DNA of 43,487 nt from a virus, in the IMG/VR virus record IMGVR_UViG_3300044699_000085, positions 1 through 43,487 of that record, one strand, 5' to 3'. The stretch's first letter is position 1. Each line of letters starts with the position of its first letter. The position numbers and the translations under genes were made by a program. Below are positions 15,277 through 21,529 of the stretch, piece by piece. The notes under the pieces were generated by a model. It ran no database searches and had not been told where the DNA came from. It saw only the letters and a program-made list of their open reading frames with translations.

Positions 15277-15584
15277 TGCCATCCAGCTTGACTGCGGAAC
15301 AGGCGGGCATTGTGAAGGGCCTGCTGGCGCGCGGAGAAAAGCAGCATGATGTGGCGGCATTCTTCGGCGTGAATGCCGGACGGGTGGCGGAGGTCGCCAA
15401 GGGCTACAAGTTTGCCGACGTGCCACCCTCTCCCAAGCGGGAGTTGCCGACACCGGCGGTCGTCAGCCTGGGCTATTCGTCGCATGTCGTGTTGCAGGCG
15501 CTCGGTATTATCGAGATCGCAATCCAGTCGGCGCGCGCGCGCATCCTGGCGGGGCATGATTTCGAGCAGGGCCGCAAACATTGA
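15276..15584 (+). CDS. Small helix-turn-helix-like protein
   Basis: 102 residues from ATG 15276 with ggggaggaag upstream. LTAEQAGIVKGLLARGEKQH, DVAAFFGVNAGRVAEVAKGY is a resolvase-like helix-turn-helix often seen in phage early operons. The C-terminal half is a separate helix (LGIIEIAIQSARARILAG). Overlaps the methyltransferase start at 15581. The binding site is unknown. Confidence 0.6.
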   Translation: MPSSLTAEQAGIVKGLLARGEKQHDVAAFFGVNAGRVAEVAKGYKFADVPPSPKRELPTPAVVSLGYSSHVVLQALGIIEIAIQSARARILAGHDFEQGRKH

Positions 15585-16594
15585 GTGCGGCGCTCGATCT
15601 TGGCGTAAACGAGACAGTCGCCGAGTGGGAAAGCGAAGGGCTGGAGCTTGGCGAGCGGGAGCGTTCGGCCGCTTCGCTGATGTGGGACATTGGCGATTGG
15701 TGGAACCGCGGTGAACGCTACGGCGGGCGGGCGAAGATCGTCACTGCCAGCGACTGGACCGGGCCAAGCTACGCCAGCTGCCGCAGGGCCGGATCAGTCG
15801 CGGAGCGTTTCGGATCTGTTAGTCGTCTAACAGATTTGAGCTTTGAGCATCACGCTATCGTCGCGCCATTGCCAGACGAGCAGGCAGTGCCCTTGCTGCA
15901 ATGGTGCCGGGATGCGCCGCAGCCGCGTTCGGTGCAGGAATTGCGCACCCGCGTGAAGCAGCTTGCGCGTGCTGCGCGCGAGGCGGAACTGGGTGATGCA
16001 CAGGCCGCATTGAGCGGGCGCTACGGCGTAATCTATGCGGACCCGCCATGGCGCTTCGAGCCATACTCTCGCGAGACCGGCATGGATCGGGCGGCGGATA
16101 ATCACTACCCGACCATGACGCTGGATGACATCCGTTCATTGCCGGTTCCGGCGGCCGACGATGCGGTGCTGTTTCTGTGGGCCACGTCGCCAATGCTGCC
16201 GGAAGCGATAGAGGTCATGACCGGCTGGGGGTTTACCTACAAGAGCCATTTCATCTGGGTAAAGGATCGTATTGGGACGGGCTACTGGAGCCGCAACCGC
16301 CACGAGTTGCTGTTGGTCGGAACCAGAGGCGAGATTCCGGCGCCGGCGCCCGGCGAGCAGTTCGTCTCGGTGATCAACGCGGCGGCCGGCGAGCACAGCG
16401 CCAAGCCAGCGGCATTTGCCGAGATGATCGAGGAGATGTTCCCAAGCCTGCCGGCCATCGAGCTGTTCGCGCGCGGGCCGCGGCTGGGCTGGGACGTGTG
16501 GGGCAATGAGTCAAACTGGGGAGGAACTTATGCCACTAGACCAGACCAAGACCAAAACGCGCCGGCTGAAAATTCCCAAGCTGGAACAGGATGA
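15581..16594 (+). CDS. MT-A70 family adenine DNA methyltransferase
   Basis: 337 residues from TTG 15581 (TTGA overlap). The N-terminal ~130 residues are a helical DNA- or partner-binding part. The catalytic domain begins RYGVIYADPPWRF, with the DPPW motif of N6-adenine MT-A70 methyltransferases, followed by DAVLFLWATSPMLPEA, GFTYKSHFIWVKDRIGTGYW and RNRHELLLVGTRG, and ends IELFARGPRLGWDVWGNE. It may protect phage DNA from restriction or alter GcrA/CcrM-type signals (inference). Its 3' end overlaps the next gene by 65 bases, unusually long for this operon. Confidence 0.8.
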   Translation: MSAALDLGVNETVAEWESEGLELGERERSAASLMWDIGDWWNRGERYGGRAKIVTASDWTGPSYASCRRAGSVAERFGSVSRLTDLSFEHHAIVAPLPDEQAVPLLQWCRDAPQPRSVQELRTRVKQLARAAREAELGDAQAALSGRYGVIYADPPWRFEPYSRETGMDRAADNHYPTMTLDDIRSLPVPAADDAVLFLWATSPMLPEAIEVMTGWGFTYKSHFIWVKDRIGTGYWSRNRHELLLVGTRGEIPAPAPGEQFVSVINAAAGEHSAKPAAFAEMIEEMFPSLPAIELFARGPRLGWDVWGNESNWGGTYATRPDQDQNAPAENSQAGTG

Positions 16595-17237
16595 AGTCGA
16601 AGCGCTCAAGAACGGTGCGGCACCGCCCGAGATCATCCGCGTTACCCGCCCGCGGCTGCGCATTGCCGCCATCCAGATCAAGGGCATCGCGCCCTACGTG
16701 CAGCACGCGTTCTCCGAAAAGCAGCGCAAGGCCATGGAGGAAACGCAGCGCCAGGGCCAGCAGGCGCGCGGCAAACGGACCCGCGTGCCCAAGGATTTCG
16801 AGGCGGTGTACGAGGCCGCCAAGCACTACGCCAGGGAGGGTTGGATCGGCATTCCGGCGCCGGCCTTCCGCAATGCCTGCATCGATGCCTGCCGCCTGGT
16901 CGGCTTCAAGATGACGCACGCCAAATGCAGCATCTTCATTGAGCCGGATGGTTTCGACCGCAACGATGGCACGCCGCTGGTACGTATCCAGGGCGAACCG
17001 CGCATCCATGAGGCGTCGGTGCGCAACGAGAGCGGCGTGGCCGATATCAGGTGGCGGCCGATGTGGGAGCAATGGGGCGCCATCGTCAACGTCCAGTGGG
17101 ACGAGGACCAGTTCAGCGCGACGGATGTGCTCAACCTGATGCTGCGCGCTGGCCTGCAGGTCGGCATCGGCGAGGGGCGGCCGTATAGCCCCAACTCAAA
17201 CGGCATGGGTTGGGGCAGATTTGAAGTAGTGGAGTAG
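16530..17237 (+). CDS. Conserved phage protein of unknown function
   Basis: 235 residues. I choose ATG 16530 because gggaggaactt sits just before it; an in-frame ATG at 16506 lacks that. After a basic N-terminus the protein reads IAAIQIKGIAPYVQHAFSEK, IGIPAPAFRNACIDACRLVG, IFIEPDGFDRNDG and AGLQVGIGEGRPYSPNSNGM, ending GWGRFEVVE. The alternation of strands and glycine-rich end recalls a single-strand or RNA-binding fold, but I do not recognise the family. It lies between a methyltransferase and the replication genes. Confidence 0.65.
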   Translation: MPLDQTKTKTRRLKIPKLEQDEVEALKNGAAPPEIIRVTRPRLRIAAIQIKGIAPYVQHAFSEKQRKAMEETQRQGQQARGKRTRVPKDFEAVYEAAKHYAREGWIGIPAPAFRNACIDACRLVGFKMTHAKCSIFIEPDGFDRNDGTPLVRIQGEPRIHEASVRNESGVADIRWRPMWEQWGAIVNVQWDEDQFSATDVLNLMLRAGLQVGIGEGRPYSPNSNGMGWGRFEVVE

Positions 17238-17254
17238 TAACAACGAACTATAGG

Positions 17255-17325
17255 CATGGCATGGCGAGGCAGGCAAGGCGGGGCATCGCGGGATTGGGCG
17301 AGGCGGGCTTGGCGGGCATGGAGTG
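17255..17325 (+). repeat. Short GGCNN pentamer array
   Basis: About 14 five-base units of the form GGCNN (ggcat, ggcat, ggcga, ggcag, then phase-shifted copies) fill the gap before the gene at 17332. It is a small version of the long array after that gene, and the two flank it. The last units run up to the gtgagg that probably serves as ribosome site. Confidence 0.75.
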
Positions 17326-17331
17326 AGGTTG

Positions 17332-17784
17332 ATGAGCGACAGGACTGACAATCTGGCGAAAGAGCTGCTGGCGTTGAAGGGCGAGGATGGCCTGATCAAC
17401 GTGGCGAAGGCCGAGCAGTGGGCGAAGCGTCATCCGAAGTCTTCGCTGTACGCGCATCTTGAGTGGGACAACGAGGTCGCCGGCGAGAAGTATAGACACT
17501 GGCAGATACGCTCGTTGATCTCGGTGCATATCGTCGATGCCGAGGGATCGCGGCGGCTGGTGCATCTGTCAATTGACAGCAGGAGCGGCGGCTACCGCCC
17601 GATCAACGACGTGCTCGGACAAAAGGAGCTGCGGGAGATCATGTTGGAGGATGCGCTGGGCGAGTTGGAACGGATGCAGCGCAAGTATGCGCGGCTGCAG
17701 GAATTGGATGGGGTCTGGGCTGCGCGCGATCAGGTCAAGCGCAGCAGGCGGGCGAGCGCTGCCGTCGCGGAAGCAGCGGATTGA
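17332..17784 (+). CDS. Unknown phage protein flanked by pentamer arrays
   Basis: 150 residues from ATG 17332 with gtgagg upstream; an in-frame GTG at 17323 is less likely. Segments are INVAKAEQWAKRHPKSSLYA, HLEWDNEVAGEKYRHWQIRS, SRRLVHLSIDSRSGGYRPIN and a long charged C-terminal helix, LERMQRKYARLQELDGVWAA. It seems to combine a short N-terminal helical domain, a beta-sheet core and a coiled coil. No enzyme motif. The arrays on both sides suggest it might bind or maintain them. Confidence 0.65.
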   Translation: MSDRTDNLAKELLALKGEDGLINVAKAEQWAKRHPKSSLYAHLEWDNEVAGEKYRHWQIRSLISVHIVDAEGSRRLVHLSIDSRSGGYRPINDVLGQKELREIMLEDALGELERMQRKYARLQELDGVWAARDQVKRSRRASAAVAEAAD

Positions 17785-18345
17785 TGGCGTGGCAAGTCCG
17801 GTCAGGGCCGGGGCAGGCTAGTCGCGGCAGGCATGGCGAGGCGAGGCTTGGCCCGACCAGGATCGGCTCGGCGGGGCAGGCCCGGCAAGACTGGACGAGG
17901 CTGGGCTTGGCTACGCCAGGCACGGCAGGCGAGGCAGGGCTTGGTCGGGCGGGGCAGGGTACGGCTAGTCAGGGCAGGCTGGGCAAGGCGCGGCTGGGCG
18001 AGGCCCGGCAGGCTGGGCATGGCACGGTCTGGCTTGGCGCGCCTCGTCGCGGCCCGGCTCGGCAGGCACGGCGCGGACGGTCCCGGCGGGTTCCGGCAAG
18101 GCACGCCTTGGCTTGGCCAGGCAGGCGGGGCACGACGAGGCACGTCCGGGCTTGGCATGGCCAGTCGCGGCTTGGCAGGCCAGGCGGGGCAACTCTCGGC
18201 AGGGCCGGGTCCGGTGCGGCCGGGCTGGGCAGGCGGGGCGAGGCTCGTCGGGGCAGGCTGGGCTTGGCAGGCCCCTGCGGGGAAGGGCGGGACGTGGCAT
18301 GGTGCGGCAGGCGCGGCAGGTCTCGGCAGGGTTTGGGCCACGGAG
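17785..18345 (+). repeat. Long degenerate GGCNN pentanucleotide array
   Basis: About 560 bases, roughly 110 units, with five-base periodicity: GGC is kept and the two following bases vary freely (at, ga, tt, aa, cg, tc, ag, gg). The phase slips every 30-80 bases. The top strand is strongly G-rich. Open frames of ~200 codons run through it on both strands, but they translate to low-complexity Arg/Gly/Ala mixtures and are by-products of the repeat. No promoter or gene is visible inside. The array ends ~200 bases before the DnaA-domain gene. Confidence 0.85.
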
Positions 18346-18516
18346 GGGCGGCAACGCCTCTCCGTCGCTGCGTGACGTGAGATGACGCCGTTGCGAAACA
18401 CGCAGAATCAGCGCACAACAGAAATGGCGCCCAGTTGGAGCTGGACGCCATCTGTAACTTTGGACTTGGCTGGAGATGGAGAGCCAAGCGGAAACGGAAG
18501 CTGCAAACCCGTTTTC

Positions 18517-18550
18517 GCACACCTCTCCGGCCATGACAAGAGAGGTGTGC
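18517..18550 (+). promoter_or_regulatory. Hairpin enclosing the ribosome site of the DnaA-domain gene
   Basis: A perfect 11-base inverted repeat, GCACACCTCTC (18517-18527) and GAGAGGTGTGC (18540-18550), has a 12-base loop. The right arm contains the gagagg ribosome site of ATG 18553, so folding should hide it. A second, weaker dyad (ATGGCG...CGCCAT) lies near 18424-18451. Confidence 0.65.
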
Positions 18551-18552
18551 CT

Positions 18553-18855
18553 ATGACATATCCGAGCATTGCCGCCATCCAGGCGGCCGTCTGCGCGCAT
18601 TTCCGCGTCACCCACCTGGATCTGCTGTCCCGCCGCCGGGGACGCGCGATCTCGCGCCCGCGCCAGGTCGGCATGTGGCTTGCGCGCCACACCACGCCCC
18701 TGAGCCTGCCGGAGATCGGGCGGGAGTTTCAGCGGGACCACACGACGGTGATGCACGCGGTGGACCGGATCGACCGCGAGATCGCCGCCATTACACCACA
18801 CGGGGCAATCGCGCTGCAGCTGAGAACAGCGCTGGAACAAGGGGAAGCGGCATGA
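18553..18855 (+). CDS. DnaA C-terminal (domain IV)-like protein
   Basis: 100 residues from ATG 18553. It corresponds to the DNA-binding domain of DnaA without the ATPase: VTHLDLLSRRRGRAISRPRQ, VGMWLARHTTPLSLPEIGRE, FQRDHTTVMHAVDRID. The last segment is the DnaA signature helix (DHTTVxHA) that contacts DnaA boxes. Such truncated proteins occur in phages and may compete with host DnaA or mark the phage origin. The start at 18553 is preferred over an in-frame ATG at 18382 because of the ribosome site and domain boundary. Overlaps the replication gene by ATGA. Confidence 0.8.
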   Translation: MTYPSIAAIQAAVCAHFRVTHLDLLSRRRGRAISRPRQVGMWLARHTTPLSLPEIGREFQRDHTTVMHAVDRIDREIAAITPHGAIALQLRTALEQGEAA

Positions 18856-20678: not shown

Positions 20679-20904
20679 ACCAACCAAGGCCGTCGAAGCC
20701 GCCATCCGCGAGGACGGACAAACCATCGCCAACGCCACACTGAAACGCGCCGGCAATGACACAATCATCGCCCTCGCCATCCTCGCCGTCGCCGTCGAGA
20801 CCACGTTCCAACGCATCCAAGACCCGGTGAAGCGATACCAGACCATGACCGAATGGTTCGCCGCGTTCGGCGACGCCGATGAGGACACCCCACATGCCGC
20901 TTGA
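20671..20904 (+). CDS. Small unknown helical protein
   Basis: 77 residues. LKRAGNDTIIALAILAVAVE is a hydrophobic helix in the middle, possibly buried or membrane-facing, followed by PVKRYQTMTEWFAAFGD and an acidic end. It overlaps the previous gene by 8 bases and the NusG-like gene by 11. Confidence 0.55.
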   Translation: MPEPTKAVEAAIREDGQTIANATLKRAGNDTIIALAILAVAVETTFQRIQDPVKRYQTMTEWFAAFGDADEDTPHAA

Positions 20905-21529
20905 CGCACTACCCTCTACCCGGTTAGAGGCACCCAACAGGATGTGCGCCCAGCCCGTCGCGGACGCTACGCCTAGCGGTAGCCGTCCCCTCCCCTGGTT
21001 CGTCATCGCATCCCACTCCCAGGCCGAGCGCCGCGCCGCACAGCACCTCGCCCAGCAAGGCTACCAAACCTACCTCCCGCTCTGCGCCATCAAGCGCCGC
21101 GATCGCGTCGTCCGCTCCATGTTCCACACAATCCAGGTGCCGCTGTTCAGCGGATACCTGTTCACCAGCTTCGATCCGCATGAAAACTGGCGCCCCATCC
21201 TCTACACCCCAGGTGTCTTCAGCCTCATCAGGACCCAGATGGCAACCCATCCCAGTCCCACAGCGCGCCTTGGAGGCCGTCAGAGCCAGTGAGGACGCCC
21301 GCCGCACCCTCACCCTCGGGAACCGCTCTGGCGCCCTGGAGCCGCCTGTAAGCTCGCTGGCGGGGGTGCTTTCGAGGCCATGACGCCGTGGTGACCGCCG
21401 TCAATCACGACCGCGCCGTCGTCGCCCTGCTCATGCTCGGACACCTCCGCGAAGTGCAGGTGCAGCCTCGACTGCCTAGGCCGCACGGGAGTGAATCGTG
21501 GCCGCACGTCTCTCGCCGCGGCACGATGA
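20894..21529 (+). CDS. Phage NusG/RfaH-like antitermination factor
   Basis: About 210 residues after repair of indels near 21230, 21345 and 21475. The NGN domain reads PWFVIASHSQAERRAAQHLA, QQGYQTYLPLCAIKRR, VPLFSGYLFTSF, as in NusG and RfaH, which bind the RNA polymerase clamp. The KOW domain follows, with VSLAGGAFEG and VVTAVNHDRAVVALLMLG. ATG 20894 is the likely start; the repaired frame ends at TGA 21527-21529 in an ATGA overlap with the next gene, which supports the repair. Last gene of the rightward early operon, where lambda has Q, so a role in switching on late genes is a reasonable inference. Confidence 0.75.

What the first reader, a model, noticed from the sequence alone, without database searches (positions are those of the whole stretch)
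17255..18345. GGCNN pentanucleotide arrays flanking one gene, ahead of a DnaA-domain gene
Seen: ~14 units at 17255-17325 and ~110 units at 17785-18345, GGC constant and two bases variable, with occasional phase slips. The variable pair does not look like simple slippage, which should give identical units. They flank an unknown gene and lie just before a DnaA-domain-IV gene and the initiator gene. Inference: a multi-site binding platform, an origin or partition element, or a G-rich R-loop-forming region.
Basis: partly seen in the sequence, partly recalled or inferred. Interest (0 to 1): 0.78.

Follow-up and report, generated by a model that had tools for sequence, protein, structure and literature searches.

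The report
Phage VIPR guide-RNA array beside vipr
The odd five-letter repeats are most likely guide RNAs of a phage system reported in 2026 (VIPR, a proposed forerunner of CRISPR), in which the constant GGC is a protein scaffold and the two changing letters spell out the DNA of rival phages to be silenced.

Summary
In detail: lag-5 identity in 17785-18345 is 0.54, against 0.34±0.02 in shuffles (maximum 0.42). The arrays are not an origin element. They directly follow window gene 16530-17237, whose family is present in 86 of 115 array-bearing loci (median gap 19 bp; GGC on the gene's strand in 158 of 161 arrays). The family profile matches PDB 36pp_D 'SUSP1 Vipr protein' (E=1.7e-42), and the AlphaFold model (pLDDT 90.7) matches CRISPR Csm3/Cas7 chains. 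This is therefore a VIPR locus (PMC13142463): a RAMP protein plus vrRNAs of alternating GGY/NN units that read DNA by a gapped code. Gene 17332-17784, between the arrays, is the likely accessory gene. Detail added here: the 'phase slips' are a fixed GGCA separator (13 of 13) that cuts the array into guides of mostly 9-11 units. Guides turn over completely between loci whose Vipr is 70-94% identical. The scaffold is really GNY, and one relative uses GTC. No convincing natural target was found for six guides. The DnaA-domain gene is an unrelated neighbour. Verdict: a new member of a known kind, with a compact array form that may or may not already be described.

The parts
16530..17237 (+). vipr gene (235 aa), RAMP-family protein, phrog_4652
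   Evidence: profile hit to SUSP1 Vipr 36pp_D E=1.7e-42; AF2 pLDDT 90.7 and Foldseek to Csm3/Cas7
17253..17325 (+). upstream vrRNA array, about 11-14 units with one GGCA separator
17332..17784 (+). probable accessory gene (vap), phrog_15946, 150 aa
   Evidence: relatives in 26 array loci, all within about 750 bp of an array; AF2 pLDDT 93, no significant PDB fold match, weak winged-helix hints
17785..18340 (+). main vrRNA array, about 100 GNYNN units cut by GGCA separators
17830..17874 (+). guide g2, 9 units
17879..17923 (+). guide g3, 9 units
17928..17972 (+). guide g4, 9 units
17977..18006 (+). guide g5, 6 units
18011..18060 (+). guide g6, 10 units
18065..18119 (+). guide g7, 11 units
18124..18173 (+). 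guide g8, 10 units
18178..18227 (+). guide g9, 10 units
18340..18365 (+). 11-bp hairpin with GCAA loop closing the array; role unknown, not kept in relatives

Best explanation
The arrays are the guide-RNA (vrRNA) arrays of a VIPR system carried by this phage. Gene 16530-17237 encodes Vipr, a single-domain relative of the CRISPR RAMP (Cas7) proteins. The array is transcribed with the genes. Vipr protomers line up on the RNA, one per five nucleotides, each gripping one GGC (GNY) triplet. The two free bases of each unit are exposed and together pair with a DNA target that has one skipped base between successive pairs. Binding represses transcription of the target, most likely genes of competing phages. 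Here about ten guides are packed head to tail, without the long tails of the SUSP1 type, and are separated by GGCA. Shown here: homology, fold, linkage, strand, unit code, separators, guide turnover. Taken from the preprint on relatives: RNA binding, the 1-nt skip rule, repression. Inferred: that this locus is active, one protomer per unit, that GGCA marks guide boundaries, and that 17332-17784 is the accessory protein.
For: A profile of 73 family members hits the solved SUSP1 Vipr protein at E=1.7e-42, and the SUSP1 gene hits a profile built without it at E=1.8e-51. The AF2 model (pLDDT 90.7) matches Csm3/Cas7 chains, best E 7e-6. Converse search by protein in bacterial genomes: 15 of 21 vipr loci have GGC arrays and 3 more have GTC, GAC/GGC or GGT versions. 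The slip base is A in 170 of 184 viral and 59 of 62 genome-locus cases, and segment length peaks at 7-11 units. No guide is shared between loci with Vipr 70-94% identical. All this agrees with the published VIPR description (PMC13142463).
Against: No convincing natural target: gapped cores of guides g6, g7, g8, g9, g2 and g4 gave 0, 3, 1, 8, 7 and 3 exact hits in IMG/VR, none concentrated in one homologous gene (with 58, 67, 79, 81). No guide-by-guide 3' tail of the SUSP1 kind was seen. 17 of 80 units depart from GGY, so some guides may be decaying. Expression was not measured.
Confidence: 0.92

Rival explanations
1. A VIPR locus that is a partly decayed relic: vipr and some guides persist but many units have lost the GGY scaffold, and the system no longer silences anything.
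For: 17 of 80 units are not GGY; two segments have only 4 and 2 units; no target found.
Against: vipr and the accessory gene are open and their models are confident; departures keep G at position 1 (78/80) and C or T at position 3 (78/80), and relatives use GTC or GAC throughout or in part; SUSP1 arrays also show off-consensus units.
Confidence: 0.12
2. Vipr binds the arrays in its own mRNA to control expression of the neighbouring genes, as TRAP does on (G/U)AG repeats; the variable pairs are mere spacers.
For: Arrays lie in untranslated regions next to vipr and on its strand; period and two-base spacers resemble TRAP sites (own knowledge).
Against: Spacers for pure binding need not turn over completely between close relatives, nor be cut into guides of about 9 units by a fixed separator; the studied relative uses the NN bases for DNA targeting (PMC13142463).
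Confidence: 0.05
3. The arrays are a replication origin or partition site bound by the DnaA-domain-IV protein or the replication initiator.
For: They lie just before a DnaA-domain gene and an initiator-like gene.
Against: The DnaA-domain gene is in none of the other 114 array loci; arrays occur at several sites per phage, next to vipr.
Confidence: 0.02

Closest known systems
VIPR systems of type II: Escherichia phage SUSP1 and Pseudomonas fulva prophage (PMC13142463; PDB 36pp)
   Same: Vipr-family protein; arrays of G-G-Y plus two hypervariable bases; arrays flank vipr and an accessory gene; phage-encoded.
   Different: Here mostly GGC (SUSP1 mostly GGT); many guides packed head to tail with a 4-nt GGCA separator; no structured tail after each guide; tolerance of GTC and GAC; an accessory gene not related by sequence to the SUSP1 gene at that position.
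Other VIPR array types named in PMC13142463 (staggered, hammerhead-interspersed, single-vrRNA)
   Same: The preprint states that several array architectures exist across seven types.
   Different: No hammerhead or other Rfam match was found here.
Class 1 CRISPR-Cas effector backbone (Cas7/Csm3 RAMP proteins)
   Same: Protein fold (Foldseek best E 7e-6, TM about 0.4) and, by inference, a row of protomers that interrupts base pairing at regular steps.
   Different: No long CRISPR repeats and no Cas family hit among the ten neighbouring proteins scanned; period 5, with pairing bases between scaffold triplets.

Membership tests
VIPR | Vipr protein: RAMP fold with G-loop, homologous to SUSP1 Vipr | tested here: met
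VIPR | Adjacent tandem arrays of a conserved GGY motif alternating with hypervariable NN | tested here: met
   63 of 80 units GGY, 76 of 80 GNY; NN takes 15 of 16 values; array adjoins vipr
VIPR | Guides of 9-16 units | tested here: met
   seven of ten separator-bounded segments have 9-11 units, the others 6, 4 and 2; median 9 across loci
VIPR | Minimal locus of vipr plus a vap gene, mostly in phages | tested here: met
   virus record; accessory-gene family in 26 array loci. Which vap of the preprint it is could not be assigned
VIPR | Invariable structured 3' tail after the repeat tract (reported for the SUSP1 clade) | tested here: inconclusive
   no repeated tail between segments; one hairpin at the array end, not conserved in relatives
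VIPR | Natural targets that follow the 1-nt skip rule | tested here: inconclusive
   no convincing target for six guides in IMG/VR
VIPR | vrRNA expressed, bound by Vipr, and able to repress a target | not testable with these tools
   needs RNA sequencing, binding and reporter assays
CRISPR-Cas | Long identical direct repeats with unique spacers and cas genes | tested here: not met
   no such array in the tandem-repeat scan; no Cas family among ten neighbouring proteins. Only the RAMP fold is shared
DnaA or iteron replication origin | Arrays linked to an initiator or DnaA-type gene across relatives | tested here: not met
   DnaA-domain gene in none of the other 114 array loci
TRAP-type RNA regulation | TRAP homologue as the binding partner | tested here: not met
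   the linked protein is a Vipr/RAMP homologue; no TRAP family hit among the neighbours scanned

The most novel reading that the evidence does not exclude
This clade uses a compact, tail-less multi-guide VIPR array in which a unit one base short (GGCA; GTCA in the GTC-type relative) marks guide boundaries and serves as the processing or phasing signal, and the scaffold triplet itself drifts between GGC, GTC and GAC together with the protein.
Probability: 0.35. Interest if true: 0.7.

Novelty: new member of a known kind. Interest (0 to 1): 0.55.

Why it matters
VIPR was reported only in 2026 and is proposed as a forerunner of CRISPR with a gapped guide code. The first-stage reader met it blind in raw sequence. 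The comparison of more than 100 array-bearing loci adds a testable rule for how multi-guide arrays are punctuated (a fixed GGCA about every 9 units), shows that guides turn over completely between close relatives, and points to natural loci with GTC or GAC scaffolds that could reveal how the protein reads the constant triplet.

Tried and rejected
Near DNA match of 23 kb of the window in the phage collection: none. Rfam scan of the locus: none. Literature on 'GGCNN' and pentanucleotide repeats in phages: nothing relevant; the system was found only through the protein. Local target search of 321 guides with skip 0, 1, 2 and 3: 40, 47, 31 and 35 near matches, no clear excess for skip 1 at this data size. 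IMG/VR scans with gapped cores: g6 none; g7 three hits in unrelated genes and frames; g8 one; g9 eight; g2 seven; g4 three, one of which matches 18 of 18 bases but lies in a 30% GC contig in a gene without a Pfam match, and about one such match is expected among the 22 core hits. Promoter and terminator scan: nothing of use. Sequence link between the accessory gene and the SUSP1 gene beside vipr: none. One wide alignment was too diverse for the genome scan, so a closer set was used. TRAP-like and origin readings were considered and set aside, as given under rivals.

Full report
Check of the observation. The five-base period is real. In 17785-18345 the identity at lag 5 is 0.54 (lags 10 and 15: 0.51 and 0.48), against 0.34±0.02 with a maximum of 0.42 in 1000 first-order Markov shuffles, and 0.27±0.05 in 100-bp windows elsewhere in the window. 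The small array before gene 17332 is weaker (0.51; 11 of 1000 shuffles reach it). The window is a whole IMG/VR virus record of 43,487 bases. A 99.3% identical phage, L005, carries the same large array.

What is constant and what is not. Ten separator-bounded segments hold 80 units: GGC 58, GTC 6, GGT 5, GAC 4, others 7. By position this is G 78/80, G 66/80, C 72/80, so GNY is the better consensus. The two following bases take 15 of 16 values. Every four-base slip in the main array is GGCA (13 of 13). Its copies lie mostly 49, 54 or 59 bp apart and cut the array into segments of 9, 9, 9, 6, 10, 11, 10, 10, 4 and 2 units. The slip base is A in 170 of 184 cases across the viral loci and in 59 of 62 cases in bacterial-genome loci. 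Segment lengths have a median of 9 units with a clear peak at 7-11, unlike the steady fall expected from random slips. So the 'phase slips' behave as punctuation.

Relatives. Nearly all are arrays with diverse NN, often several per contig. Clustering the genes of 115 loci (window included) gave one outstanding family, which contains window gene 16530-17237. A profile search puts it in 86 of the 115. The nearest array is a median of 19 bp away and never more than 1 kb, and 158 of 161 arrays have GGC on the gene's strand. Three more records carry the gene elsewhere. Conversely, 21 bacterial-genome loci found only through the protein include 15 with GGC arrays and three with other scaffolds: L145 has about 300 GTCNN units with GTCA as the commonest four-base slip (28 of 47), L142 a GAC/GGC mixture, L148 GGT. 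This coupling in both directions is the core evidence that array and protein form one system.

Identity. The family profile hits one solved protein strongly, 36pp_D 'SUSP1 Vipr protein', E=1.7e-42; the next hits are at noise level and include Csm5. The window protein alone reaches it only weakly (E=0.004). SUSP1 gene 28474-29061 matches the family profile at E=1.8e-51, and GGTNN arrays are visible around it. The AlphaFold model of the window protein has mean pLDDT 90.7, and its PDB fold matches are headed by Csm3 and type VII Cas7 chains, best E 7e-6, TM about 0.4. The paper that describes Vipr is PMC13142463. There, Vipr binds vrRNAs of alternating GGY/NN, the NN pairs read double-stranded DNA with one skipped base, targets are mostly competing phages or satellites, and the effect is transcriptional repression. 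It is a preprint.

Neighbour genes. Gene 17332-17784 (phrog_15946) has relatives in 26 array loci, all within about 750 bp of an array, and relatives follow vipr directly in L132, L146, L148 and L149 (read from the sequence). It is the probable accessory gene. Its model is confident (pLDDT 93), but no PDB fold matches significantly; the best weak hits include winged-helix DNA-binding domains. The DnaA domain IV gene at 18553-18855 occurs in no other array locus and is taken as an unrelated replication gene.

Guides evolve fast. Between pairs of loci whose Vipr proteins are 70-94% identical, no run of five or more units is shared; only the identical pair L029/L041 shares guides. This fits guides replaced under selection, not slippage, which would make identical units.

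Targets. Using the published skip rule, cores of guides g6, g7, g8, g9, g2 and g4 were scanned exactly in IMG/VR: 0, 3, 1, 8, 7 and 3 hits. The flanking units mostly fail, the genes are unrelated, and the skipped base does not favour the third codon position. One g4 hit matches 18 of 18 bases but lies in a 30% GC contig, and about one such match is expected among 22 core hits. A local test of the skip rule was not informative. So the target side rests on the preprint and not on evidence here. Guides g2-g4 and g6-g9 have no match with three or fewer mismatches in the window itself; g1 and g5 are too short to judge.

What remains open. Which of the seven VIPR types this is, and whether GGCA-punctuated, tail-less arrays are the 'staggered arrays' named in the preprint, could not be checked because the supplement was not readable. 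No repeated 3' tail was seen; a single 11-bp hairpin closes the array at 18340-18365, and relatives do not keep it.

Noticed in passing
L014, L020, L032, L080, L102, L108, L123 and about 19 other array records: 26 of 115 array-bearing records show no vipr gene anywhere in the record, many with a single run of about 10-15 units; possibly orphan guides that use another element's Vipr, but many records are fragments.
   Followed up: partly
L145:4476-8000: A Gemmatales metagenome contig has a Vipr relative followed by about 300 GTCNN units in place of GGCNN, with GTCA as the commonest four-base slip.
   Followed up: partly
L120, L094, L013, L036, L124: Other loci use other short fixed separators between guides: GGAACGN, CCTCAG, TCAG, CGCA.
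   Followed up: partly
15581-16531: MT-A70 family methyltransferase gene just upstream of vipr (PF05063, E=2e-23).
   Followed up: no
20879-21292: NusG-like transcription factor gene (PF02357, E=3e-14), a possible phage antiterminator.
   Followed up: no
18517-18551: CACACCTCT / AGAGGTGTG inverted repeat just before the start of the DnaA-domain gene, which could cover its ribosome site (seen by eye).
   Followed up: no
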